In this document: piece after piece, positions 980 to 13,591 of the stretch
Layout: each line of letters opens with the position of its first letter
Numbering within the stretch: the first letter of the stretch is position 1
NCBI RefSeq assembly: GCF_004959855.1
Contig: NZ_SPNT01000007.1
Coordinates: 186,001 to 250,000 of the forward strand
Source of the DNA: Nitratireductor sp. XY-223
GTDB taxonomy: Bacteria; Pseudomonadota; Alphaproteobacteria; Rhizobiales; Rhizobiaceae
Length of the DNA stretch: 64,000 nucleotides
Direction of reading: 5' to 3'
The notes under the pieces: generated by a model
What the model was told of the DNA's origin: nothing
What the model saw: the letters and a program-made list of their open reading frames with translations, nothing else
The model's database searches: none
Made by a program: the position numbers and the translations under genes

Positions 980-2095
980 TCAATCCGGCAACCGCCGCAC
1001 CGACCCGATATCCGTTTCCCGTCCCGTGCGCGCGGATTCGATGGCGCTGAACGCGAGGGCCAGGCTCCGGAGGTTTCCCGAAGCCGCGTTCAGCGGCTCC
1101 CGATCCTCCTCGATGGCACAGAGCAACTCGCCCATGGCGCCCCGGAATCCGTCGTTGAACCACTGCCCAACCAGTTCGGGAGCGGCCCAGCCTGCTTCCG
1201 TCGTCAGTGTGACCCGTTGCTGGCCGAGGTCGGGGCCGGTGCTCATCAGGCTGCCCTCGGTTCCGGCGATGTAGGTCGTGTCCTGCGGCCCGAAACGCGT
1301 TGCGGCATCGAAAACCAGCGAGGCCTGGCCGTCGTCCAGCCGTACCAGGCACTCGGCCAGCAAAGGCGGCGCCGCCTGCTGGTCCGGCGCGCGCGCATTC
1401 ATCGCGAACACGGAACGCGCGCGCTCGCCCGCAATGCTCACAAGGAAATCGAACCAGTGGATGGCGAAATCATAGAAGACCAGGTCGTCGATCGCCTCGA
1501 ATGCCGTGCCCTTGATCCAGCTGTGATCCCAGTGAATGCCGATATGACAGCTTATCAGGTCGCCGATGATACCGGTCCTCACGGCCTCGCGCATATAGGA
1601 AAGATGGGGCGCCCAGCGGCCGTTCTGGTTGACCGCCAACCTGACACCGTTTTCGCCGGCAAGGCGCACAAGCCGCTCTCCGGTATCGAGATCAAGCACG
1701 AAAGGTTTCTGCGAAAGCACGTTCTTGCCGGCCGCCAGTGCGCTTTCGACGAGCGCCACGCGTTCGGCCGGATGGGGGGTGATATCGACCACCTCGATGG
1801 CGGGATCGGTCAGCACGTCATCGTAACTGTCGGAGGCGATGGCTTCGGGAAAGAACTCGTCGCGCCGGGCAACGGCATGGGCAAGGGTGCGGCTGCAGAT
1901 GATGGCGACATCGAAACCGGCCGTCCGGTAAGCGTCCAGATGCGAGGCGGAAATCCCGCCCGCACCGACAAGGGCGATGCGCGGGCGATAGTCCGACGGG
2001 CGCGGCGGGCGGTAGGCGAGCTCCGGCGCCGCCACCTGCTCCGCCTTCGCTGCGGTCAGGGCATAGGTATCTGTATCGGTCATGTTGTCGGTCAC
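980..2095 (-). CDS. Gfo/Idh/MocA family NAD(P)-dependent oxidoreductase
   Basis: This 371-aa protein has an N-terminal Rossmann fold (VGAGGISASH near residue 47) and the C-terminal alpha/beta domain of the Gfo/Idh/MocA family. That family oxidises or reduces sugars, inositols and amino-inositols. The usual EKP motif reads QKP (VLSQKPF), keeping the Lys. It is the last gene of the 6670-980 operon. The GTG start at 2095 overlaps the preceding stop by 4 bp (GTGA); an in-frame ATG at 2083 is the alternative start. Pairing with a second Gfo/Idh gene and a MocDEF-like oxygenase suggests a cyclitol or methylated sugar substrate, which is inference. Confidence 0.9.
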   Translation of the reverse strand: MTDNMTDTDTYALTAAKAEQVAAPELAYRPPRPSDYRPRIALVGAGGISASHLDAYRTAGFDVAIICSRTLAHAVARRDEFFPEAIASDSYDDVLTDPAIEVVDITPHPAERVALVESALAAGKNVLSQKPFVLDLDTGERLVRLAGENGVRLAVNQNGRWAPHLSYMREAVRTGIIGDLISCHIGIHWDHSWIKGTAFEAIDDLVFYDFAIHWFDFLVSIAGERARSVFAMNARAPDQQAAPPLLAECLVRLDDGQASLVFDAATRFGPQDTTYIAGTEGSLMSTGPDLGQQRVTLTTEAGWAAPELVGQWFNDGFRGAMGELLCAIEEDREPLNAASGNLRSLALAFSAIESARTGRETDIGSVRRLPD

Positions 2096-3168
2096 GGCAC
2101 CAGCCCCAGCGTGCGTTTTTGCTCAGCCGACAGCGCGGCGGTATCGACGATGCGCTGCGCATCGAGGCACAGGGCCGGATCGAGCGGACCGCCGACCGGC
2201 TCGTCGCGCTCGAGGCAGCCGAGCACATATTCGATCGGCCCGCGCCGGCCGGGCGGCAGCGCGTCGACCGGAACGGGCGTCGGCTCCGGCTTGTCCCGGG
2301 TCTGCACGGTGACATGGTCCTCGTAGTCGTAGCTGGCGATCGTGCCTTCCGATCCGACCACGACGAAACCGCATTTCGGCTGCGGCTGTATGGTCCAGGG
2401 ATCGGTGAAAGTGCCCCAGCGCGTCTCCATCTTCGAAAGGCCGTGCGGATAGCGGCAGACGGTGACCGAGTGCTGGTCGACCTCGATGCCGGGCGTCTCG
2501 TCGACGACCGAGGTGACCTCGATCGGAATCCGGCCGTTCTGGAACCAGGTGCCGAGCGTCGCCCCGTAGCCGAGATAGTCCAGCAGGCTGCCGCCGCCGG
2601 AAGCGCGCTTGTACCACCACGATTCCGGCTTCAGCCGCTCCACCTCCTCGGCACTGACCTCCACCTTGTCGGCCAGGTGATAGAGCGGCCCGCGGTTGCC
2701 GTCGTAAAAATGCACCTCGACGAGATCGCCGATGACGCCCTCGTCGATCAGCCGCTTGCATGTGACATGGCTCTCGACCCAGGCAAGCGGCCAGTTGATC
2801 GCCATCTTCATGCCCGTGCCTTCCATGGCGGCGAGCATACGGCGGGCATCGGCAACGGACGCCGCGAAGGGTTTCTCGACCAGGATGTGAACCCGGTGCC
2901 TTGCCAGTTGCTCGACATGGTCGGCGTGCTCGGCGGTTGCGGCGCAAAGGATCGCGAGATCAGGCTTCGTTTGCTCCACACAGGTATCGAGATCGGTGAA
3001 GACCCGCTCCTCTGGGATCGAGAAATCGGCGATCGCCTGGGCCATCCGCTCGCGCGACTTGTCGTAAACGCCGACAATTTCCGCATCCGGATGGTCAAAG
3101 ACCTGGCGCAGCAGATCGCCCATGTGCATGTGATCGAAATTGATGCCCGCAACCCGCCATTTGGTCAT
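2092..3168 (-). CDS. Gfo/Idh/MocA family oxidoreductase
   Basis: This 358-aa protein has a Gfo/Idh/MocA fold with the EKP motif intact (ILVEKPF). Its N terminus is unusual: the first beta strand leads into GINFDHMHMG instead of a canonical GxGxxG loop, a His-containing variant I associate with a subset of the family. The ATG has a strong GGGGAGGA ribosome-binding site. It is the fifth gene of the operon, 33 bp after the PanB-fold gene, and is translationally coupled to the next dehydrogenase. It probably oxidises a ring hydroxyl or reduces a keto sugar; the exact substrate cannot be read from sequence. Confidence 0.88.
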   Translation of the reverse strand: MTKWRVAGINFDHMHMGDLLRQVFDHPDAEIVGVYDKSRERMAQAIADFSIPEERVFTDLDTCVEQTKPDLAILCAATAEHADHVEQLARHRVHILVEKPFAASVADARRMLAAMEGTGMKMAINWPLAWVESHVTCKRLIDEGVIGDLVEVHFYDGNRGPLYHLADKVEVSAEEVERLKPESWWYKRASGGGSLLDYLGYGATLGTWFQNGRIPIEVTSVVDETPGIEVDQHSVTVCRYPHGLSKMETRWGTFTDPWTIQPQPKCGFVVVGSEGTIASYDYEDHVTVQTRDKPEPTPVPVDALPPGRRGPIEYVLGCLERDEPVGGPLDPALCLDAQRIVDTAALSAEQKRTLGLVP

Positions 3169-3201: not shown

Positions 3202-4008
3202 TTATGGTGTCGAAGCGTCGATCGTCTCCAGAAACCGTGAAAGTTCCTGTTCGTCCATTTCAACCAGATGGTTCTTTTCGGGAAATGTCCGGTCGGCGAC
3301 GTCCCGCGCATAGTCGCGAAACGCGGCGATGCGCTCGTTCTGAAGTCGCTTCTGCTGTGCAAAGAAATCCCGGTAAACTTTTGAATGCTTTGGATAATGT
3401 CCGTCGTGGCTGCCGAGGACATCGCAGGCAAAGAGATACTGGGCGTCGCACCCGGCGCCCGCACCCATGGAGATCATCAGCATGGATGTGCGTTTCGAGA
3501 TCGCTTCGGCGACGGCCGGCGGCACCACCTCGATTTCTGCCGCGAATGCGCCCGCCTCTTCCAGCGCCCTTGTCTGCCCCATGACCATCAAGGCGCTGTC
3601 GCAGGTCTTGCCGACGGCCTTGAATCCGCCGGTCCAGGTGCGGCGCGACGGGATGAGGCCGACATGGCCGACCACGGGTATCCCCTCGTCGCGCAGGCGC
3701 CTGACGATTGGCAGGCTGGCGCCGCAGTAAACGGCATTGGCTCCAGCGCTGAGCAGCCTGAAGGAAATGCGAAGATAGTCTTCCTCGGTGACGAAGAGGC
3801 CCGGCTCGAGCCCGCCGACGACAAAGGGCGACGGACAAACCTCGCGAAAGCCGGCCTGGGTGATCAGTTCCGGCGGAACCGACAGCATGTCGATCCTGGC
3901 CTCGTGCGCGGCAGCGGCCTCGTCGAGGCTCTCCACCCGCAGTTTGGTGAGCTGCCGCCGGCCCTTGAGGGCCAGGATATCGGCGACTGTCGGTGCGGCG
4001 TCGTGCAT
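3202..4008 (-). CDS. PanB-fold (ketopantoate hydroxymethyltransferase-like) protein, degenerate active site
   Basis: This 268-aa protein aligns by eye along the whole PanB family: GHVGLIP (114-120), EEAGAF, the general-base Glu region EIEVVP (E160), GAGAGCDAQ (182-190) and PKHSKVY. However, the metal-binding GDS loop reads SVPPE (43-47), the second Asp region reads GLEPG, and the VKLEGG Lys/Glu segment reads VYCGAS (93-98). The Mg-binding Asp residues and substrate Lys of true ketopantoate hydroxymethyltransferase are therefore absent. It sits between the ferredoxin reductase and two dehydrogenases, so a role in oxygenase-linked catabolism is more likely than pantothenate synthesis. The RBS is GGGGAG. 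Confidence 0.78.
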   Translation of the reverse strand: MHDAAPTVADILALKGRRQLTKLRVESLDEAAAAHEARIDMLSVPPELITQAGFREVCPSPFVVGGLEPGLFVTEEDYLRISFRLLSAGANAVYCGASLPIVRRLRDEGIPVVGHVGLIPSRRTWTGGFKAVGKTCDSALMVMGQTRALEEAGAFAAEIEVVPPAVAEAISKRTSMLMISMGAGAGCDAQYLFACDVLGSHDGHYPKHSKVYRDFFAQQKRLQNERIAAFRDYARDVADRTFPEKNHLVEMDEQELSRFLETIDASTP

Positions 4009-4018
4009 CGCGGCTCCC

Positions 4019-5239
4019 CTATGCGGCCAGCAGCGTCTTGAGGCGCCGCCCGGTGGCGGCGAGTGCGGCAGGATCCGGCGTCGCGTTCCTTGCGATCAGC
4101 ATCTGCGCGACCCGCATGTCGCGCGCAAGATCCGACAGTTTCCCGAGGGCCGCGGCGCCGACGAGCCGGCCGCCGTGGTCAAGGTGGAACTGCAGCTGCG
4201 TCTCGTCGGTCAAGATGCGCTCGACCATCGTTTCGCCGAGATCGGGCAGCCCGGCAATCTGCAGATGAAGGTCATACTGCTCCGACCAGAACCACGGGAC
4301 GATGCTTTGCCGCTCATCGGCACCCGCCATGTTGCGCCCGGCCAGCGCGCCCTGCTCGCGGGCGACCTGCCAGCTTTCGAAACGCATCGGCTTGTCGCTG
4401 AATTGCGGATGGATGCTCGCGGCGCAGTCGCCGCAGGCATAGATCGAGGGATCCGAGGTGCGCAGCCTGTCATCGGTGACGATGCCGTTGTCGATCCGCA
4501 ATCCGGCCTTTCGGGCAAGCGCGGTTTCGGGTTCCGCGCCGACACCGCAAACGACGACGTCACCGGAAATGCGCTCGCCATTGTCGAGGATGACGGCCCT
4601 TCTCTCGATACGGCTGAGTGCCGTCCCGAAATGGAAGAGGACGCCGCGACGGGCGTGTTCCAGGCGGATCCGTTCGGCAAGGGCGGACGGCACCGCGCGG
4701 GCGAGCAGCCGTTCCCGGCTTTCCAGAAGCGTAACCCGCCCGCCGAGCTTCACGGCGCTGGCTGCGAGTTCCAGGCCGATGAAACCGCCGCCAACAATGA
4801 TCGCGTGGCCGCCGGCGCCAAGCAGGTGCCGCAACGCCCAGGCATCCTCGAACGAACGCAATGTCAGGGCATATTCGCTGCCCGGCACCTTGAGCAGCCG
4901 TGCCCGCGCCCCGGTCGCCAGCAACAGATTCTCATAAGGTACCGATCCCCCGGACTGGAGCCGGATCAGCTTTCGCTCGGGGCTGATTTCGGCGACCCGG
5001 GTGTTCGGTCTCAGGATAACTCCGAGTTCGGCGAAGCGCTTTGCCTCCGCGCTTGTCCTGGTTCTGGGCGGTTCGGTGTCCGTCAGCAGTTCCTTGGACA
5101 ATGGCGGCCGCTCATAGGGTCCGTGCCGCTCTTCGCCGAACAGCGTGATCGGGCCGGCCCAGCCGGCCTCGCGCAGCGCGACCGCCGCGCAGCCGCCCGC
5201 CTCCCCCGATCCGATGATGATCATTGCCGGTTGTTCCAT
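4019..5239 (-). CDS. FAD-dependent ferredoxin reductase (MocF-like)
   Basis: This 406-aa protein is a pyridine nucleotide-disulphide oxidoreductase of the rubredoxin/ferredoxin reductase type. It has an N-terminal FAD loop (IIGSGEAGG), a second NAD(P)H-binding GGGFIGLELAA near residue 150, and ACGDCA near 268 closing the flavin site. It would pass electrons from NAD(P)H to the Rieske ferredoxin encoded 3 bp upstream, which in turn feeds the membrane oxygenase encoded before it. This matches the reductase component of the rhizopine MocDEF arrangement. It starts at ATG 5239 in a near-overlap with the ferredoxin stop. Confidence 0.9.
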   Translation of the reverse strand: MEQPAMIIIGSGEAGGCAAVALREAGWAGPITLFGEERHGPYERPPLSKELLTDTEPPRTRTSAEAKRFAELGVILRPNTRVAEISPERKLIRLQSGGSVPYENLLLATGARARLLKVPGSEYALTLRSFEDAWALRHLLGAGGHAIIVGGGFIGLELAASAVKLGGRVTLLESRERLLARAVPSALAERIRLEHARRGVLFHFGTALSRIERRAVILDNGERISGDVVVCGVGAEPETALARKAGLRIDNGIVTDDRLRTSDPSIYACGDCAASIHPQFSDKPMRFESWQVAREQGALAGRNMAGADERQSIVPWFWSEQYDLHLQIAGLPDLGETMVERILTDETQLQFHLDHGGRLVGAAALGKLSDLARDMRVAQMLIARNATPDPAALAATGRRLKTLLAA

Positions 5240-5242
5240 CGT

Positions 5243-5560
5243 TCAGTCCGCTTTGATGAACACGCGACCGTCGCGTATCTCGGTCTCGTAGGTTTTCAGG
5301 TCAATGCAGGCCGGCGCGCCCTTTGCCTTGCCGCTGGTGAAATCGAACCGGCCATTGTGCTTCGGACACTCGATGATGGTGTCCATGACCAGCCCGTCGC
5401 ACAGATGCACCTTTTCGTGCGTGCACAGGCCGTCCGTGCAGAAATACCGGTCGTCCAGCGTGCGGTAGAGCGCGTAGGCCTGGCCGCCATGCTCAAATCC
5501 GATAACGTCTTCTTCCTCGATGTCGTCGAGCGCACAGGCGTCGATCCAACGCTCCTCCAA
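5243..5560 (-). CDS. Rieske-type [2Fe-2S] ferredoxin (MocE-like)
   Basis: This 105-aa soluble Rieske ferredoxin has both cluster-binding motifs: C46-T-H48 (LCTHEK) and C65-P-K-H68 (ECPKHNG). Length and motifs fit the MocE/bacterial small Rieske ferredoxins that shuttle electrons to oxygenases. The start is a TTG at 5560 preceded by GGGAGG at good spacing; there is no ATG nearby that would retain the fold. It lies between the oxygenase and reductase genes and should bridge them electronically. Confidence 0.92.
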   Translation of the reverse strand: MEERWIDACALDDIEEEDVIGFEHGGQAYALYRTLDDRYFCTDGLCTHEKVHLCDGLVMDTIIECPKHNGRFDFTSGKAKGAPACIDLKTYETEIRDGRVFIKAD

Positions 5561-5590: not shown

Positions 5591-6670
5591 TTATTCGGCC
5601 GGTTTGAATTGCGTGCCGTGATTGTACGGCACGGCCTTGGCGCCTTCCGGCAGGACCCTTTCGACAAAATAGGACGGATCGCGCACCTGCCTCAGAAGCG
5701 TCGGGATGATTTCCCGATAGGCGGCGATGGTGCTCGGATAGGGCTCCGGGCAATCGTCCTTGATGAGCTCATGGAGCCGCGGCAGCGCGTGATAGGGCAC
5801 CATCGGAAACATGTGATGCTCGATGTGGTAGTTCATGTTCCAGTAGAGGAACCGGAAGACCGGATTCATATAGATGGTGCGCGAATTCAGCCGGTGATCG
5901 AGCACGTCCTCGGCAAGCCCGGCGTGCTGGGTAACGCCGAAGAACACGGTCAGGAATCCGCCATAGATCGTCGGCAGGCCGATCAGCATCGCCGGGAGGA
6001 TCGATTGCATGACGAGGCAAGCAAGGGCGACGGCCGCCAGGATCGCCAGATAGATGCGGGCGATCAGATAGACCTTCCAGCGCTCCATTTCGGGCACGAA
6101 GGCCTTTTCCTGGTCGCTCATCCGCCCGCCTGCGTGCATGAGGAGCGCCCGCACCGTGTTGAAGCTGCTGCGGATGGCGAGAAGGTTGAGCAGCAGTGTT
6201 TTGATATCGGGCGGCCGCGGCGCGATGATCTCCGGGTCGCGCCCGACAATAATCGTGTCGGTATGATGGCGCGTGTGGCTCCAGCGCCAGATGGTCGGCT
6301 CCCGGAAGATCATGAAGCTCGCGACATAATAGAGCGCGTCGTTCATCCAGCGGGTGCGGAAGGCGGTGCCGTGACCCGTCTCGTGCCAGCGGCTGTCGGA
6401 GGACGAGCCATAAAGGACGCCGTAGACCAGGAAGAACGGCACGCACCACCAGGTGCCCCAGAAGTAGACGCCGCCCGCGCCCGACAGCACCAGGGCGGCG
6501 ATCCAGATCGCCGTGTCGCGCAGCGCCGGACCGTCCGAGCGGCGCATCAGGCCCTTCATCGTCTTGCGGTCGATGGAGCAAGAGTACCACTCCGCAGAGG
6601 CCAGGCCGTTTTTCTCGGCCAGCTCGCTGTCGCGTCCCACAAGGCTGTAATCGCGCGGCGTCGGTTCCAT
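5591..6670 (-). CDS. Membrane di-iron oxygenase, fatty-acid desaturase fold (MocD-like)
   Basis: This 359-aa membrane protein has the three His boxes of the desaturase/hydroxylase superfamily: HETGH (96-100), HTRHH (132-136) and HIEHH (282-286). Hydrophobic stretches lie around residues 55-85 and 155-230. Rhizopine MocD belongs to this fold and works with MocE and MocF in removing an O-methyl group; the following two genes encode exactly those partner types. By analogy it hydroxylates a small substrate, perhaps an O-methyl cyclitol, rather than a lipid. It is the first gene of the operon, read from the regulatory region shared with the LacI gene. Confidence 0.88.
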   Translation of the reverse strand: MEPTPRDYSLVGRDSELAEKNGLASAEWYSCSIDRKTMKGLMRRSDGPALRDTAIWIAALVLSGAGGVYFWGTWWCVPFFLVYGVLYGSSSDSRWHETGHGTAFRTRWMNDALYYVASFMIFREPTIWRWSHTRHHTDTIIVGRDPEIIAPRPPDIKTLLLNLLAIRSSFNTVRALLMHAGGRMSDQEKAFVPEMERWKVYLIARIYLAILAAVALACLVMQSILPAMLIGLPTIYGGFLTVFFGVTQHAGLAEDVLDHRLNSRTIYMNPVFRFLYWNMNYHIEHHMFPMVPYHALPRLHELIKDDCPEPYPSTIAAYREIIPTLLRQVRDPSYFVERVLPEGAKAVPYNHGTQFKPAE

Positions 6671-6883: not shown

Positions 6884-7900
6884 TTGGCAGCGCGACGCCC
6901 GAGACTGAGGGAGATTTCGGAGAAGGCCGGCGTCTCAAAGGCGACCGTCGACCGGGTCATCAACAACCGGGCCGGCGTGCAGGAGCATACACGGCGGCAT
7001 GTGCTGTCCGTCGCGGCGGAACTGGCGGGCGAGAGTCCCGATGCGCGGGCCGACGCAATCACCCTGGACTTCGTCATTCCAGACAGCCGCAACGCGTTCA
7101 TGTCGCAGTTGATCGACGAGCTGGAGGCCCATGCGCGCCGCCGCAAGGATGTGCGGGTTGCCATTCATCACCTGGCGAATATCGATGCCGAGGACGTTGC
7201 CGCCACCCTGGACCGCCTTGCCGAAACCAGCACCGCCATCGGACTGATCGCGCTCGACCATCACAGGGTGCGCGCGACCGTGCGCCGGCTGTGCGAGCGC
7301 GGCATTGCTATCGCGACGATCGCATCCGACATCAGAAACGTTCCGCGGACCTTTTATGCCGGCGTCGACAACCGGGCGGCCGGGCGGCTGGCCGGCCACC
7401 TGACCGGGCGACTGCTGTGCAAGGAGACGGCAAATGTGGCGCTGATCCTCGGCGCGCGCGCCTATCACGGCCACGAGGAACGGGAGATGGGATTTCGCAG
7501 CGTGCTGCGCGAACGTTTCAGCGGCCTGACAATCGTTGCGGAACGCGAGATCCACGAGAATGTGGATATCGCTTACCGGGAAACCGCCGCCATCCTCAAA
7601 GCGCAGCCGGACCTTGACGCCATCTACTGTATCGGAGCCGGCCAGCCCGGCGTCGCACGGGCATTGATTGACAATGGCCGCGCCGGTTCGGTCGTTTTCG
7701 TTGCCCATGGCCTGTCGGCCGACACGCGCGGCTATCTGATGGACGGCGTCATGGACGCCGTCATCGACGAGGATACTTCGGTTATCGCCGAACAGGTGAT
7801 CGAGAGGCTTGTCGCCGGGCAGAACGGCCTCGCGCCGGAACGGATGCCGGCCATTCGCATCCAGGCGATCTTTCCCGAGAACATTCCGGTGGAGCCATGA
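6884..7900 (+). CDS. LacI family transcriptional regulator
   Basis: This 338-aa protein has an N-terminal LacI helix-turn-helix (LREISEKAGVSKATVDRVIN, residues 6-25) with hinge, then a periplasmic-binding-protein-like effector domain typical of sugar-sensing repressors. The start is TTG at 6884, preceded by GGAGG with a 7-nt spacer; no ATG fits better. It overlaps the next gene by 4 bp (ATGA). Divergent placement makes it the likely repressor of the oxygenase operon and possibly the ribose-type importer. The effector domain is most like ribose/cyclitol-binding folds, so a sugar or cyclitol inducer is plausible. Confidence 0.9.
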   Translation: MAARRPRLREISEKAGVSKATVDRVINNRAGVQEHTRRHVLSVAAELAGESPDARADAITLDFVIPDSRNAFMSQLIDELEAHARRRKDVRVAIHHLANIDAEDVAATLDRLAETSTAIGLIALDHHRVRATVRRLCERGIAIATIASDIRNVPRTFYAGVDNRAAGRLAGHLTGRLLCKETANVALILGARAYHGHEEREMGFRSVLRERFSGLTIVAEREIHENVDIAYRETAAILKAQPDLDAIYCIGAGQPGVARALIDNGRAGSVVFVAHGLSADTRGYLMDGVMDAVIDEDTSVIAEQVIERLVAGQNGLAPERMPAIRIQAIFPENIPVEP

Positions 7901-8994
7901 GACCCGGCCTGGAACGGATTGCGGTCAGCGGGATGGCGATCCAGTTCGATCCGCAGGGCGGCCGCATTGACGAGATGGTCATTGAACCGTCTCCGGGCGC
8001 GGCGGCGCTGCGACCGCTTCACAAGGCACCCTGGGCGGCAACGGATGAAGGCCTGCCGGACATAGTCGACCTGGTCGAGCGGCGGCTGGCCGGCGACTTT
8101 TTCTGCGCGCCGTTCGGCAAGCAGCCCGGAACGCCGATCCACGGCTGGACGGCCAACGGTCGCTGGCTGGCGACGGGCAAGGAAATCCGAACCGACGGCT
8201 GTCTCACCGCAAGTTACCGCCTTCAGGAAGAGGTTCAGGGCGCCGAGGTCATCAAGGAGCTGTCGCTTCGCCCCGGCCACCCCTTCCTCTACCAGCGTCA
8301 CCGGTTCCGCGGCGGACAGGGTCATCTGCCCGTCGGTCACCACGCCATGATCCGGGTCCCCGGCGGCGCCCGCCTGAGCTTCTCGGAAAAACGCTTCTGC
8401 GTGACGCCGAACGACGCGCCCGAACCCGATCCGCAGCGTGGCCGGTCCTTGCTTGCCTATCCGCAGCGCTCCGGATCACTGGCGCAGATCAAGATGGCGG
8501 ACGGCACTATCCGCGATGCCGCCACATACCCGTTCGAAAGCGGCCACGAGGATACGGTCGTCCTGGCCGAGGCGGATGCGGCGATCGGCTGGTCGGCAGC
8601 GCTCGCCAAAAAGGACGGCTTTCTGTTCTTTGCGCTCAAGGATGCGCGGCGCCTGCCGGAAACCGTCTTGTGGATGAGCAATGGCGGACGCAGTTACGCA
8701 CCCTGGCTCGGCCGGCACACATGCGTGCTCGGCATCGAGGAGACGGCCACGGGCTGTCACGCCAGCGGGCGTTTCGAAAGCACCGGCGCGTTGTCGCCGC
8801 AGGGTCTGGCGACGGGCCTCGTTCTTGATGAGGCCAGGGAAACCGACATCCGCTACGGGTTCGGTGCCCTACCCGCGCCGCAAGGCTGGAGCGAGGTCGC
8901 CGACATAAAAGCGGGACATTCGGACCTTACGATCGTCGATGCGGGCGGGGACAGCATTACCCTGCCCTTCGACTGCGCGTTCTTCGGCTTGTGA
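7897..8994 (+). CDS. Galactose-mutarotase-fold protein (aldose 1-epimerase-like)
   Basis: This 365-aa protein is coupled to the LacI gene by an ATGA overlap. The sequence has the beta-rich, Trp/His-containing character of the galactose mutarotase-like carbohydrate-binding superfamily (for example PIHGWTANGRW and VGHHAMIRVP), but I cannot place catalytic residues with certainty. It could interconvert anomers of the sugar imported by the neighbouring ABC system or act as a related sugar-binding enzyme. It is convergent with the permease gene, 3 bp apart. Confidence 0.65.
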   Translation: MRPGLERIAVSGMAIQFDPQGGRIDEMVIEPSPGAAALRPLHKAPWAATDEGLPDIVDLVERRLAGDFFCAPFGKQPGTPIHGWTANGRWLATGKEIRTDGCLTASYRLQEEVQGAEVIKELSLRPGHPFLYQRHRFRGGQGHLPVGHHAMIRVPGGARLSFSEKRFCVTPNDAPEPDPQRGRSLLAYPQRSGSLAQIKMADGTIRDAATYPFESGHEDTVVLAEADAAIGWSAALAKKDGFLFFALKDARRLPETVLWMSNGGRSYAPWLGRHTCVLGIEETATGCHASGRFESTGALSPQGLATGLVLDEARETDIRYGFGALPAPQGWSEVADIKAGHSDLTIVDAGGDSITLPFDCAFFGL

Positions 8995-8997
8995 CGG

Positions 8998-9978
8998 TCA
9001 GGAATCCTCGGTGATGCGCACATAAACCGCCGTCACCACCAGGATGATGAGACCGAACATGATGCGCCGTGAGCCCTCCGGCATCTGCAGCACCGTCAGC
9101 ATCGTCGTGAGCACGGTGAGGATCAGCGCGCCGACGATGGTGCCGGAATAGGTGCCGCGGCCGCCGAAAATGGAGGTGCCGCCGATGACCGCGGCGGCGA
9201 CCGACGGCAGGAGCAGCGGCACGGCCAGCGACAGCGACGGGGCCTTGATGAGGCCGACATAGATGAGCCCGGTGATACCGGCAATCAGGCCGGACAGCGC
9301 ATAGAGCGCCAGGATGACCTGCCAGGACCGCACGCCGGCGAGGCGCGCGGCATCCTCGTTCTCGCCGATCGCATAGAGCAGCCGGCCGAAACCGGTGCGG
9401 CGCAGCGCATAGATGATCAGCGCCGCCAGCGGCAGGAAGACGAGGAGCGAATTGGGCGCGCCATAGGTCCGCCCGGTCCCCAGCCAGGCAAGGATCTCCG
9501 GCACGCTGGAGCCGGTGGCGATCACCGTGCGCTGATAGACCTGCAGGCAACCGGTGCCGATCAGTCCGGTCCCGAGGGTCATGATCAGCGGGTGGACGCG
9601 GAAAAGCCCGACGCCGATGCCGTTGGCGATGCCGATCATGACGGCCGGAATCAGCGAAACCGCGATGGCGCCGGGCGTTCCCAGGATCGCCACCTGTGTC
9701 GCCACGACGAAGGCGCTGATGGTCGCGGCAATGCCGACGGAAAGATCGATGCCGCCGGTCAGCATGGTGAGCGTCTGACACGCGGCGAGCATCGCCAGCG
9801 GAATGGCGAACTTGATGGTGTTGCCGATCCAGCGTTCGTTGAAGATGCCCGGACGCATGATCTCGAGGACGACGACAAGCCCGATCAGCAGCACCACGAG
9901 CGGCACCAGCGGATGGTCCCGCAGGAACCGCCGGACGCGCTTGGCAATGCTGAGGTCGTCCTGCGCCGGCATGGTCAT
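8998..9978 (-). CDS. Ribose-type sugar ABC transporter permease (second copy)
   Basis: This protein of about 326 aa is a multi-spanning permease of the RbsC/branched-chain-like family, with GGIDLSVG near residue 70 and GGTSIFGGRGTYSGT near residue 260, hallmarks of these permeases. The ORF track begins far upstream in a shadow frame. The real start is ATG at 9978, overlapping the previous permease stop by 4 bp. With the adjacent RbsC-like permease it should form the heterodimeric membrane channel of the importer whose ATPase and binding protein are encoded upstream. Confidence 0.9.
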   Translation of the reverse strand: MTMPAQDDLSIAKRVRRFLRDHPLVPLVVLLIGLVVVLEIMRPGIFNERWIGNTIKFAIPLAMLAACQTLTMLTGGIDLSVGIAATISAFVVATQVAILGTPGAIAVSLIPAVMIGIANGIGVGLFRVHPLIMTLGTGLIGTGCLQVYQRTVIATGSSVPEILAWLGTGRTYGAPNSLLVFLPLAALIIYALRRTGFGRLLYAIGENEDAARLAGVRSWQVILALYALSGLIAGITGLIYVGLIKAPSLSLAVPLLLPSVAAAVIGGTSIFGGRGTYSGTIVGALILTVLTTMLTVLQMPEGSRRIMFGLIILVVTAVYVRITEDS

Positions 9979-10949
9979 GATCGTCGCCCCCTCACGGCAA
10001 GCAGGCCGCCGATCATCACGACGACGACCATGATGGTGCCCTCCACGATCGTGGTGATGTTCGGATCGACGGCAAGGAATGTCAGGTCGGTGCGCACCAG
10101 GCGCAGGATGAAGACGGCGACGATGGGGCCAAGCAATCCGCCGCGCCCGCCGCCGAGCACCACGCCGCCCAGGACGACCGCGGCGACGCTGGCCAGCAGG
10201 TAGGGTCCGGGTATCGGCGCGCCGATGCCGGTGCTCATCGTCAGCACGAGGCCGCCCATCGCCGCGAACAGGCCGGCCATCGCATAGGCGCCGACCTTGA
10301 CCCGGTTGACGGCAACACCGGTCCGGAACGCCGCGAGGCTGTTGCTGCCGATTGCATAGACCGACAAGCCGAAGCGCGAACGGCGGAACGGTATCCAGAC
10401 CACCATCAGGCAAACGGCGAGCAGAATCAGGGATTTGGGAAACCAGACCGTGACGCTCGCCGGAATGCCCGGAATCGACAGCGGCCCGACCAGCAGCCCC
10501 TTGAGCCATTCGGCAGCGGCGCCACCGGGCGCCTTGAGGATCATCAGCGCCACGCCTTCCCAGACGAAGAGCATCGCCAGCGTGACGACGATGTCGGGCA
10601 CCCGCGTCAGCACGATCAAAAGCCCGTTGATGGTGCCCATCAAGGCACCCAGGCACAGGACGAAGACAACCACGAATATGGCGTATTGCTCGCTGGAACC
10701 GTCCATCATCACGGCCGCCGTGACACTGGTGACCGCCATCATGGACGCAATCGAGAGGTCGATGCCCCCGGCGATCACGACGACGGTCTGCGCGGCGGCG
10801 GCGAAGGCGAAGGGCAACGCCGCGCGGGCCAGTGAATCCAGGCCCGAAGCGCCGTATTCCGGCTGTATGATCTTGGTCAGGACCAGCAGCAGCGCGAGGA
10901 TCGCGAAAAGGCCGGTCAACCAGTAGTGGCTGCGCAGAAAACGGATCAC
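9975..10949 (-). CDS. Ribose-type sugar ABC transporter permease (first copy)
   Basis: This 324-aa RbsC-family inner-membrane permease has GGIDLSIASMMAVTS near residue 60 and GGVVLGGGRGGLLGP near 270. The GTG start overlaps the ATPase stop (GTGA), showing translational coupling. It pairs with the downstream permease. Substrate specificity comes from the binding protein at 12566-13591. Confidence 0.9.
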   Translation of the reverse strand: MIRFLRSHYWLTGLFAILALLLVLTKIIQPEYGASGLDSLARAALPFAFAAAAQTVVVIAGGIDLSIASMMAVTSVTAAVMMDGSSEQYAIFVVVFVLCLGALMGTINGLLIVLTRVPDIVVTLAMLFVWEGVALMILKAPGGAAAEWLKGLLVGPLSIPGIPASVTVWFPKSLILLAVCLMVVWIPFRRSRFGLSVYAIGSNSLAAFRTGVAVNRVKVGAYAMAGLFAAMGGLVLTMSTGIGAPIPGPYLLASVAAVVLGGVVLGGGRGGLLGPIVAVFILRLVRTDLTFLAVDPNITTIVEGTIMVVVVMIGGLLAVRGRRS

Positions 10950-12475
10950 GGCCGCGGTTCCTCCGCGTTGTCGCCCGCCCGCTCACCTGCGCTGCCATTG
11001 GTGAGACCGTAGGCGGCGCGCATGAGGGTCGGCTCATCGGCATCCTGCGCATCGATAATGTCAACCACGCGCCCGTTGAAGATCACCACGGCGCGGTCGC
11101 AGGCGAGCTGCACCTCCTCGAGCTCCGATGTGTATAGGAGGACGGACGATCCCTGTGCCGCCAGTTCCCGCAGCAGCGGATAAATCTCGCGCTTGGTACG
11201 GATATCGATGCCGCGCGTAGGATCGAAACACAGGAGCGTGCGCACGCCGGCGGCGATCCACCGGGCGATGGTCACTTTCTGCTGGTTGCCGCCGGACAGG
11301 CGCTGAACCTCGCCTTGCGCCCGGGTGTCAATCTGCAGCCGGTCGATGGCGCCGTCGACGCGCGTCTTTTCCGCGCCCATGTTGATGTTCCCCCACCGGG
11401 CGGGCCGCGCGTAGAACGGCAGCGCGATGTTTTCCCGCACCGAGCGCTGCATCAAAAGCGCGTCCGCGCGGTCGCCCGGCACGTAGACATGGCCGGCGGC
11501 GATGGCATCGGCGGGGTGATGGAAGCGCACGTCCCTGCCGTCGATCTCGATATGGCCGCCGGTGGGGCGCTCGAACCCGGCCAACACCTCAAAGAGTTCG
11601 TCCTGCCCCTGCCCCTCCAGGGCGACGACACCGAGAACCTCCCCGCTCCGCATTTCGAAGGAGACGTCGGAGAGTTTCGTTCCGGATGAAAGGTTGCGAA
11701 CCCGGAGGCGTGGCGTCTCCTGTGTCTGGACCGGCAGGGACTGACCGGTTGCGCGAACGATTTCTTCCGTCGATTTCACCGGTGCGCCGAGCATCATCTC
11801 GACGATGCGCTCCTCGGAACCAGGACCGACATCGACCGTGCCGACGGTCAGGCCGTCGCGCAGCACCGTCGCGCGATCGCAGAGGCTCGAGATCTCTGAA
11901 AAACGGTGGGAGATGTAGATCACCGACCGGTCCAGCTCACATTGCCTGCGGACGACCTTGAGAACCCGCTCGACGAGGTCGGTCGGCAGGGCAGCCGTCA
12001 TCTCGTCGAGCAGCAGCACGTCCGGTTCGCTGGCGAGCGCGCGCGCCAGGTCGAGGATGCGCAGGGTCGCAAGCGGCAGGCGGTGGACCGGCTCGTCCAG
12101 GCGAAGTCCGCTGATGCCGAGTTCCTCCACCCATTTCAGAAAGGGCTCGACGGGGGTTTCGCTGAGACGCAGGTTGGCGGCGACATCAAGGTCCGGTATC
12201 AGCGAGGGCTCCTGATAGACCGGGACCAGCCCGGTCTGCCGCGCCTCCGCCGGCGAATGGACCCGGTGGTCCCTTCCCCTGATCCTGATCTGCCCCGCAT
12301 CCGGCCGGATCGCGCCGGTCAGGATCTTGACGAGCGTCGACTTGCCCGCACCGTTCGCCCCCATCAGCGCGACGATTTCGCCGGCCGCAACCTGCATGGA
12401 CGCGTCCCGCAAAGCCAGCACGGCGCCGAAGCTCTTGACGACACCGGAGGCCTCTAGGAGCGGCTCATTCGCCAT
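10946..12475 (-). CDS. Sugar ABC transporter ATP-binding protein, RbsA type (two fused NBDs)
   Basis: This protein of about 509 aa contains two ATP-binding domains. NBD1 has GANGAGKSTL and LLLDEMT but a weak signature (RLPLATLRILDLARAL). NBD2 has a good signature (RLSGGNQQKV) but a Walker B reading LLCFDPTRGID, where DEPT is expected. The track start at 12511 lacks a ribosome site; ATG 12475 (MANEPLL) matches the family N terminus and is preferred. It energises the two permeases that follow. A 90-bp gap with hairpins separates it from the binding-protein gene. Confidence 0.9.
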   Translation of the reverse strand: MANEPLLEASGVVKSFGAVLALRDASMQVAAGEIVALMGANGAGKSTLVKILTGAIRPDAGQIRIRGRDHRVHSPAEARQTGLVPVYQEPSLIPDLDVAANLRLSETPVEPFLKWVEELGISGLRLDEPVHRLPLATLRILDLARALASEPDVLLLDEMTAALPTDLVERVLKVVRRQCELDRSVIYISHRFSEISSLCDRATVLRDGLTVGTVDVGPGSEERIVEMMLGAPVKSTEEIVRATGQSLPVQTQETPRLRVRNLSSGTKLSDVSFEMRSGEVLGVVALEGQGQDELFEVLAGFERPTGGHIEIDGRDVRFHHPADAIAAGHVYVPGDRADALLMQRSVRENIALPFYARPARWGNINMGAEKTRVDGAIDRLQIDTRAQGEVQRLSGGNQQKVTIARWIAAGVRTLLCFDPTRGIDIRTKREIYPLLRELAAQGSSVLLYTSELEEVQLACDRAVVIFNGRVVDIIDAQDADEPTLMRAAYGLTNGSAGERAGDNAEEPRP

Positions 12476-12556
12476 GCTGCGGATATCCCCCTTGAGGATG
12501 GTTGGAACCATGCGGCGGCGCCCGGGAGGTCCGAAGGCACCGCCGCCGGTGGAGGT

Positions 12557-12578
12557 GCCGGGTGATTATTCACCCGGC
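12557..12578 (-). repeat. Perfect stem-loop at 3' end of ribose-type binding-protein gene
   Basis: GCCGGGTGA/TCACCCGGC forms a 9-bp perfect stem with a 4-nt loop. The stop codon of the binding-protein gene lies in the loop side of the hairpin. No T-tract follows, so it is more likely an mRNA 3'-end stabiliser or processing element than a full terminator. A second GC-rich potential stem (GGCGGCG/CGCCGCC) lies downstream before the ATPase start. Confidence 0.6.
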
Positions 12579-13591
12579 CCTTTGCAAGCAATAATGTCGT
12601 CCTTGCTGTATGTCGTCCAGCCGGGGATCATGATGCTCACCGGCCACTCGGGATCGAGCGACGGGTCGGCTGCGGCAGCCAGTTGTGCCTTGCCTTCGTC
12701 GGTCTTGTTTTCCCAGAGCTGCGGATCGACCAAGACAGTCTGTGCGTCCGGCTTGTCGCCGTCGAGAAGCTGGATGGCGAGGGTCACGCCGGCACCGCCG
12801 ACGGATCCCGGGTTGGTCACCGCCGCGCCGACGAGGCCGTCCACGGAGTTGAGCTGTCCGACAAAGCCGGCATTGTCGGCGCCGACGATCGGCACCAGCG
12901 GCACGTCGGATTCAACAAACGCATCGACGATCACGTTGTCGATCCCGGAGGTCCATACGCCATCGAAGGGTATGCCTGTGGCGATGTAGTCCAGGATCTG
13001 CTGCTTTCCCTGGTCCTGCTGCCAGCCGGTGAACACCTCGTGCGCCACCTTGACGTCCGGATACTCGGCAAGCGCCCGCTTGAAGCCCTTGTCGCGGTCG
13101 TCGTCGGCCGCGGCGCCGGCGGCGCCGCGCATATAGACCACGCTGCCCTTGCCGCCGATTTCCTCGAACAGCCACTTGGCGCCGAGATAGGCGTATTCTT
13201 CCTGGTTGTTGGACAGCACATAGGCCGACGGTTCGGTCACCGCCTGGTCGACCGCCACCACGACGATGCCCTTGTCGGTGGCTTCCTTGATCGCGGCATT
13301 GATGCCTTCCGGGTTCGCCGGATTGACCACGATCGCATCGACGCCGGCCTCGATCAGGTTGCGGATGTCCTCAAGCTGACCGGCCGCATCCGTGTTGCGG
13401 TGGGCGATGTTGAGCGACTTCACCTTGCCGGAAGCCTTGGCCTGGGCCTTCATGGCGCAGACCATTTCCTCGCGCCAGCCGTTGCCCTGAACGGTATTCG
13501 AGACACCGATCGTATAGTCGCTGGCCAGGGCCGTCGTGGACATGCCCGCCACAAAAGCACCGAGCAGTACACCGGATAGCAGTCGTTTCAT
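12566..13591 (-). CDS. Ribose/cyclitol-type periplasmic substrate-binding protein
   Basis: This 341-aa protein has a Sec signal peptide (basic KR, hydrophobic LLSGVLLGAFVAGM, cleavage near ALA-SD). A type I periplasmic binding domain follows, with IGVSNTVQGNGWREEM, ARNLIEAGVDAIVVNP-like and VVVAVDQAV segments. It delivers a sugar or cyclitol to the RbsA/RbsC-type importer encoded downstream. The ATG has an AAGGAGG ribosome site. A 53-bp gap separates it from the isomerase gene. Rhizopine MocB is of the same binding-protein class, but specificity is not visible. Confidence 0.92.
   Translation of the reverse strand: MKRLLSGVLLGAFVAGMSTTALASDYTIGVSNTVQGNGWREEMVCAMKAQAKASGKVKSLNIAHRNTDAAGQLEDIRNLIEAGVDAIVVNPANPEGINAAIKEATDKGIVVVAVDQAVTEPSAYVLSNNQEEYAYLGAKWLFEEIGGKGSVVYMRGAAGAAADDDRDKGFKRALAEYPDVKVAHEVFTGWQQDQGKQQILDYIATGIPFDGVWTSGIDNVIVDAFVESDVPLVPIVGADNAGFVGQLNSVDGLVGAAVTNPGSVGGAGVTLAIQLLDGDKPDAQTVLVDPQLWENKTDEGKAQLAAAADPSLDPEWPVSIMIPGWTTYSKDDIIACKGPGE

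What the first reader, a model, noticed from the sequence alone, without database searches (positions are those of the whole stretch)
3202..4008. PanB-fold protein without its metal-binding residues
The protein keeps the PanB scaffold (GHVGLIP, E160, GAGAGCDAQ) but the GDS loop is SVPPE and the VKLEGG segment is VYCGAS. The known Mg ligands and substrate Lys of ketopantoate hydroxymethyltransferase are missing, so it cannot catalyse the standard reaction by the usual mechanism.
Basis: partly seen in the sequence, partly recalled or inferred. Interest (0 to 1): 0.6.

Follow-up and report, generated by a model that had tools for sequence, protein, structure and literature searches.

The report
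PanB paralog tied to oxidative demethylases
A protein that databases call a vitamin B5 (pantothenate) enzyme is really a separate, well-conserved family that travels with oxygenase genes thought to strip methyl groups from plant-type compounds, so it probably deals with the toxic formaldehyde they release, a job for which no folate-linked enzyme is known.

Summary
It has the PanB fold (PF02548; best Foldseek hits are ketopantoate hydroxymethyltransferases). Both Mg-ligand Asps (Ec D45, D84), S46 and substrate K112 are replaced, and about 19 residues after the GDS loop are deleted. It is not degenerate: 57 homologs form one group apart from 30 PanBs (SH-aLRT 100), dN/dS is 0.03-0.17, and H136 and E181 are invariant together with E158, H208 and R226. 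It is not pantothenate PanB: the genome has a normal panBC pair, genomes lacking PanB and PanC keep this gene, and the 63%-identical R. etli protein RHE_PE00443 failed to complement a panB mutant (PMC3082293). The new point is context. The gene sits in a mocDEF-like oxygenase operon; of 36 strong homologs in 298 genomes, 32 lie within 6 kb of mocD. Distant homologs pair with FA_hydroxylase-type or Rieske oxygenases. purU (formyl-tetrahydrofolate deformylase) lies next to it in 20 of 137 loci, across several genera. Best explanation (about 0.5): it captures formaldehyde (or a hydroxymethyl product) from oxidative demethylation, probably onto tetrahydrofolate. This is inferred from context; no activity was tested, and some mocDEF operons lack the gene.

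The parts
3202..4008 (-). PanBL: PanB-fold protein without D45, S46, D84 and K112 of PanB; H115, E158, E160, H208 and R226 invariant in its family
5591..6670 (-). MocD-like membrane di-iron oxygenase (FA_desaturase family), 57% identical to MocD of a moc-type cluster in R. lentis
5243..5560 (-). MocE-family 2Fe-2S Rieske-type ferredoxin (TIGR02377 above cut-off)
4019..5239 (-). Ferredoxin reductase (MocF-like, FAD)
2092..3168 (-). Gfo/Idh/MocA dehydrogenase A, 33 bases downstream of PanBL
980..2095 (-). Gfo/Idh/MocA dehydrogenase B, overlapping A
6884..7900 (+). Divergent LacI-family regulator with sugar-binding domain
7897..8994 (+). Protein without Pfam or NCBIfam match, conserved beside the regulator in close relatives
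8998..13591 (-). Sugar ABC transporter: two permeases (8998-9978, 9975-10949), ATPase (10946-12511), binding protein (12566-13591)

Best explanation
PanBL is an auxiliary one-carbon enzyme of oxidative demethylation operons. The MocDEF-type oxygenase hydroxylates an O- or N-methyl group of a sugar- or inositol-like substrate, giving an unstable hydroxymethyl product that releases formaldehyde. PanBL, derived from the folate-using PanB scaffold but without its Mg/keto-acid site, takes this C1 unit and most likely condenses it with tetrahydrofolate to 5,10-methylene-THF, using the retained H115/E160 pair (Ec H136/E181) and E158 as acid/base groups. Where PurU is encoded alongside, it frees THF and formate after oxidation to 10-formyl-THF. 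Shown: the separate family, loss of PanB residues, non-PanB status, linkage to oxygenases and to purU. Inferred: demethylation as the oxygenase reaction here, formaldehyde as the shared product, THF as the acceptor, and all active-site roles.
For: 32 of 36 strong homologs within 6 kb of MocD; genome co-occurrence OR 79, p 7e-21, uncorrected for phylogeny. MocD and MocE homologs each found near PanBL in 97 of 132 loci. Distant PanBLs pair with other oxygenase types: FA_hydroxylase family (L117-L119, L139, L221), Rieske ring-hydroxylating alpha subunit (L124), so the shared feature is a small product rather than one scaffold. Clusters with the moc gene set in P. zundukense and R. lentis read mocDEF-panBL-purU. 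purU adjacent in 20 of 137 loci, at least 7 changes on the tree, alpha- and betaproteobacteria, once as a divergent pair without mocD nearby (L018). PanB is itself a folate C1 enzyme that handles methylene-THF (PMC7770189). Spontaneous HCHO + THF is far too slow in vivo (PMC7073904).
Against: No activity or folate binding was tested. Sixteen genomes have strong MocD and no PanBL, including one with the same operon as the window (L144), so it is dispensable. purU also occurs in a mocD operon without PanBL (L147) and only a minority of PanBL loci have it. The window's own genome shows no PurU above cut-off and has a glutathione-type formaldehyde dehydrogenase. A few PanBL loci show no oxygenase nearby (L126, L128, L129, L218). 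The folate site of PanB is not defined, so its retention could not be checked.
Confidence: 0.48

Rival explanations
1. PanBL handles formaldehyde without folate: an aldolase-like enzyme joining it to a keto-sugar or 2-oxo acid, or a hydrolase that splits the hydroxymethyl hemiacetal left by the oxygenase.
For: Same linkage to oxygenases. A title cited in PMC7770189 (Sugantino 2003) reports THF-independent hydroxymethylation by M. tuberculosis PanB, so the scaffold can use C1 without folate. Gfo/Idh dehydrogenases in the operon could supply keto-sugars.
Against: Adjacent purU points to folate. The keto-acid and metal residues are lost and no Lys found only in this family is invariant that could form a Schiff base.
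Confidence: 0.2
2. PanBL acts on the demethylated or oxidised carbon skeleton (isomerase, lyase or hydrolase of the main pathway), not on C1.
For: Operon holds sugar transport and dehydrogenase genes.
Against: Missing from otherwise identical operons (L144); found with different oxygenase types, regulators and transporters; linked to purU.
Confidence: 0.15
3. PanBL is a non-catalytic partner, such as a scaffold or stabiliser of the membrane oxygenase complex.
For: Tight gene linkage to MocD/MocE; loss of known catalytic residues.
Against: Barrel residues H115, E158, E160, D188, H208 and R226 are invariant over 57 diverse members, the pattern of an active site; many oxygenase operons work without it.
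Confidence: 0.12
4. It is a second or decaying ketopantoate hydroxymethyltransferase.
For: Database annotation as 3-methyl-2-oxobutanoate hydroxymethyltransferase.
Against: Ortholog does not complement panB (PMC3082293); kept in genomes without PanB and PanC; ligands lost family-wide; dN/dS 0.03-0.17; own genome has panBC.
Confidence: 0.02

Closest known systems
PanB / ketopantoate hydroxymethyltransferase (EC 2.1.2.11, PF02548)
   Same: Fold, C-terminal two thirds by sequence, H136 and E181, GxG and D209/D217 motifs
   Different: No D45, S46, D84, K112, E114; deletion of about 19 residues; E158, H208, R226; operon context; ortholog does not complement panB (PMC3082293)
RHE_PE00443 of R. etli CFN42 p42e (Villasenor 2011, PMC3082293)
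   Same: Ortholog, 63% identity, same mocDEF-like operon
   Different: That paper reports only the failure to act as PanB and gives no function or operon link
MocDEF of rhizopine catabolism (Bahar 1998, cited in PMC10107442)
   Same: MocD-, MocE- and MocF-like genes in the same order; PanBL and purU follow mocF in two clusters with the moc gene set
   Different: Window operon has a LacI regulator, no mocR; the substrate is unknown; in the passages read, PMC10107442 names mocDEF without a panB-like gene
Formaldehyde-activating enzyme Fae (PF08714)
   Same: Proposed kind of reaction: joining formaldehyde to a pterin C1 carrier
   Different: Different family; Fae uses tetrahydromethanopterin; no Fae in this genome

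Membership tests
PanB / KPHMT (EC 2.1.2.11) | PF02548 domain and PanB fold | tested here: met
   130 bits over a cut-off of 28.7; Foldseek best hits all KPHMT
PanB / KPHMT (EC 2.1.2.11) | Curated PanB model cut-offs (NF001452, TIGR00222) | tested here: not met
   117 of 272 and 98 of 207.55 bits
PanB / KPHMT (EC 2.1.2.11) | Mg ligands D45 and D84 | tested here: not met
   P46 and G66; same in the family
PanB / KPHMT (EC 2.1.2.11) | Substrate Lys K112 | tested here: not met
   Y94; 0 of 57 have K
PanB / KPHMT (EC 2.1.2.11) | H136 and E181 | tested here: met
   H115 and E160, 57 of 57
PanB / KPHMT (EC 2.1.2.11) | Supports pantothenate synthesis | not testable with these tools
   Published test on the 63% ortholog: no complementation (PMC3082293)
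PanB / KPHMT (EC 2.1.2.11) | Use of methylene-THF | not testable with these tools
   No folate site can be read from the sequence
MocDEF oxygenase operon (rhizopine type) | mocD, mocE and mocF homologs in order | tested here: met
MocDEF oxygenase operon (rhizopine type) | MocR-type (PLP aminotransferase-like) regulator beside it | tested here: not met
   LacI-type regulator instead; so not filed as a rhizopine operon
Fae (formaldehyde-activating enzyme) | PF08714 domain | tested here: not met
   PanBL matches only PF02548 in Pfam; no Fae in the genome

The most novel reading that the evidence does not exclude
PanBL is the first dedicated enzyme that condenses formaldehyde (or the hydroxymethyl product of an oxygenase) with tetrahydrofolate: a PanB-fold enzyme that lost its Mg/keto-acid half-site and kept C1 transfer chemistry. 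It would be a general folate outlet for membrane di-iron and some Rieske demethylases in proteobacteria.
Probability: 0.3. Interest if true: 0.82.

Novelty: new variant of a known kind. Interest (0 to 1): 0.6.

Why it matters
Formaldehyde entry into folate metabolism is treated as spontaneous, and He et al. 2020 (PMC7073904) found the spontaneous rate far too slow, suggesting only that a Fae variant for THF might exist. PanBL is a concrete, testable candidate, found on several hundred genome contigs, many of plant-associated bacteria, and annotated as a pantothenate enzyme, an error that can mislead metabolic models. It would also add a gene to the rhizopine pathway and to oxidative demethylation of methylated sugars or inositols.

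Tried and rejected
Second PanB: rejected. Pseudogene: rejected by dN/dS and invariant residues. Simple 'metal-less, therefore dead': not accepted, because Glu at the E158 column appears wherever D84 is lost, although on the tree this may be one event and not independent covariation. Looked for a replacement of PanBL in mocD operons that lack it: none was recognised; most of these operons are simply shorter. Looked for other C1 genes in PanBL operons: none but purU recurred among the proteins examined; not every neighbour was annotated. Paper searches for pinitol demethylation in rhizobia and for panB with mocD gave nothing relevant. First ORF calls by length were misled by antisense ORFs and were redone with a composition score.

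Full report
Observation. The gene is on the minus strand, 4008..3202, 268 aa. Pfam calls PF02548 with 130 bits, but both curated PanB models fail their cut-offs by a wide margin. The nearest solved structures by sequence are PanBs. An AlphaFold model (mean pLDDT 83.7, pTM 0.83) matches PanB structures first (Foldseek ranks 1-28, TM about 0.62-0.75). The loops at 123-129 and 200-212 are of low confidence.

Residues. In an alignment of 57 homologs (PanBL) with 30 PanBs, E. coli D45 is mostly P/A/G, D84 is G/A/S/C, S46 and E114 are gone and K112 is Tyr in 50 of 57. About 19 residues after the GDS loop are deleted. H136 and E181 are invariant. H208 and R226 are invariant and not seen in the PanBs; E158 is invariant and absent from canonical PanB; D188 and D196 are also invariant. 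That D45, D84 and K112 are Mg ligands and substrate Lys of E. coli PanB is established knowledge (structure 1M3U); it was not recomputed here. The two groups are separated by a branch with SH-aLRT 100. dN/dS between near pairs is 0.03-0.17, so the protein is under purifying selection.

Not pantothenate. The genome has a canonical panB directly followed by panC. Four genomes carry PanBL but neither canonical PanB nor PanC: G040, G080 and G115 of genus g44 and G042 of g46, all about complete. G147 (g46) has only a partial PanBL match and also lacks both. The R. etli ortholog RHE_PE00443, 63% identical (the p42e record's gene is taken to be this locus tag because it is the PanB-like gene of p42e), did not complement a panB mutant even when constitutively expressed, and those authors already noted the missing metal-binding domain (PMC3082293).

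Context. In the window the operon reads mocD-like oxygenase, MocE ferredoxin, ferredoxin reductase, PanBL, two Gfo/Idh/MocA dehydrogenases, with a divergent LacI regulator and a sugar ABC transporter nearby. The scan of genome contigs found 503 stretches encoding relatives, of which the best 80 were fetched; some of the 503 may be ordinary PanB. In 298 genomes of the order, 32 of 36 homologs of at least 250 bits lie within 6 kb of a MocD homolog, and genome co-occurrence has odds ratio 79, p 7e-21, not corrected for phylogeny. Distant homologs (33-45% identity) sit with FA_hydroxylase-family oxygenases, mostly with a Rieske ferredoxin, or with a Rieske ring-hydroxylating alpha subunit. A few have no recognised oxygenase within the fetched stretch (L126, L128, L129, L218).

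Link to folate. In two clusters with the moc gene set, P. zundukense and R. lentis, the order is mocDEF-panBL-purU. Over 137 loci, purU lies within 400 bases of panBL in 20, in Phyllobacterium, Devosia, Paramesorhizobium, Mesorhizobium, Leptothrix, Sphaerotilus and others; the tree needs 7 changes, at least 4 of them forced by supported branches. In L018 panBL and purU are a divergent pair without mocD nearby. Since genomes carry only a few purU genes, such adjacency is not expected by chance. PurU hydrolyses 10-formyl-THF and is useful when C1-loaded folate is in excess (established knowledge).

Limits. Sixteen genomes have a strong MocD homolog and no PanBL, including G145 with the same operon as the window; so PanBL is accessory. 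L147 has purU in a mocD operon without PanBL. The window's own genome has no PurU above cut-off and no Fae, but has a glutathione-type formaldehyde dehydrogenase. That MocDEF demethylates is carried over from rhizopine genetics (Bahar 1998, cited in PMC10107442; the demethylation step itself is my knowledge of that model); the substrate here is unknown.

Mechanism proposed. MocDEF hydroxylates the methyl group; the hydroxymethyl product gives formaldehyde; PanBL joins it to THF. Loss of the Mg/keto-acid half of the PanB site and retention of H136/E181 fit an enzyme that kept C1 handling and lost the keto-acid partner. This is inference. By the published estimate, a cell living on spontaneous condensation would double in over three weeks (PMC7073904), so an enzyme would be useful. 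A metal site rebuilt around E158/E160 is not excluded: Glu at the E158 column occurs in all 65 sequences without D84 and in none of the 22 with it, but this may be a single event on the tree.

Verdict. Observation confirmed; interpretation partly supported (not PanB: yes; no metal: not shown). A new functional branch of a known family, with a testable and possibly important role. Confidence in the C1 role with THF 0.48; interest 0.6.

Noticed in passing
L127:7307-8182 (+); L131:7526-8410 (+) and the equivalents in L132-L137: A second PanB-like group keeps D45, S46 and K112 but has D84 changed to C or S, E114 to Q and V179 to E. In L127 it lies between a DmdA/GcvT-like gene and a VanA_C (vanillate O-demethylase-type) oxygenase; in most of the others beside an FA_hydroxylase-like gene and a DUF6166 gene.
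   Followed up: partly
G040, G080, G115, G145 (genus g44); G042, G147 (genus g46): Near-complete genomes without canonical PanB and without PanC; several still carry PanBL, so they are likely pantothenate auxotrophs or use another route.
   Followed up: partly
L144 (G145:C1:1918000-1933500): The same operon as the window (mocD, mocE, gfoA, gfoB, ABC transporter) but without PanBL and without the ferredoxin reductase: a natural deletion to compare.
   Followed up: partly
L018:8023-9033 (-) and L021:11852-12829 (+): A protein of about 330 aa that looks alike in both and lies beside the panBL-purU pair in two betaproteobacteria; the L021 copy has no Pfam match.
   Followed up: no
window 7897-8994 (+): 365-aa protein with no Pfam or NCBIfam match, conserved beside the LacI regulator in close relatives (about 50-62% identity). 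Other PanBL clusters carry a DUF4432 gene in a similar place; whether the two are related was not tested.
   Followed up: no
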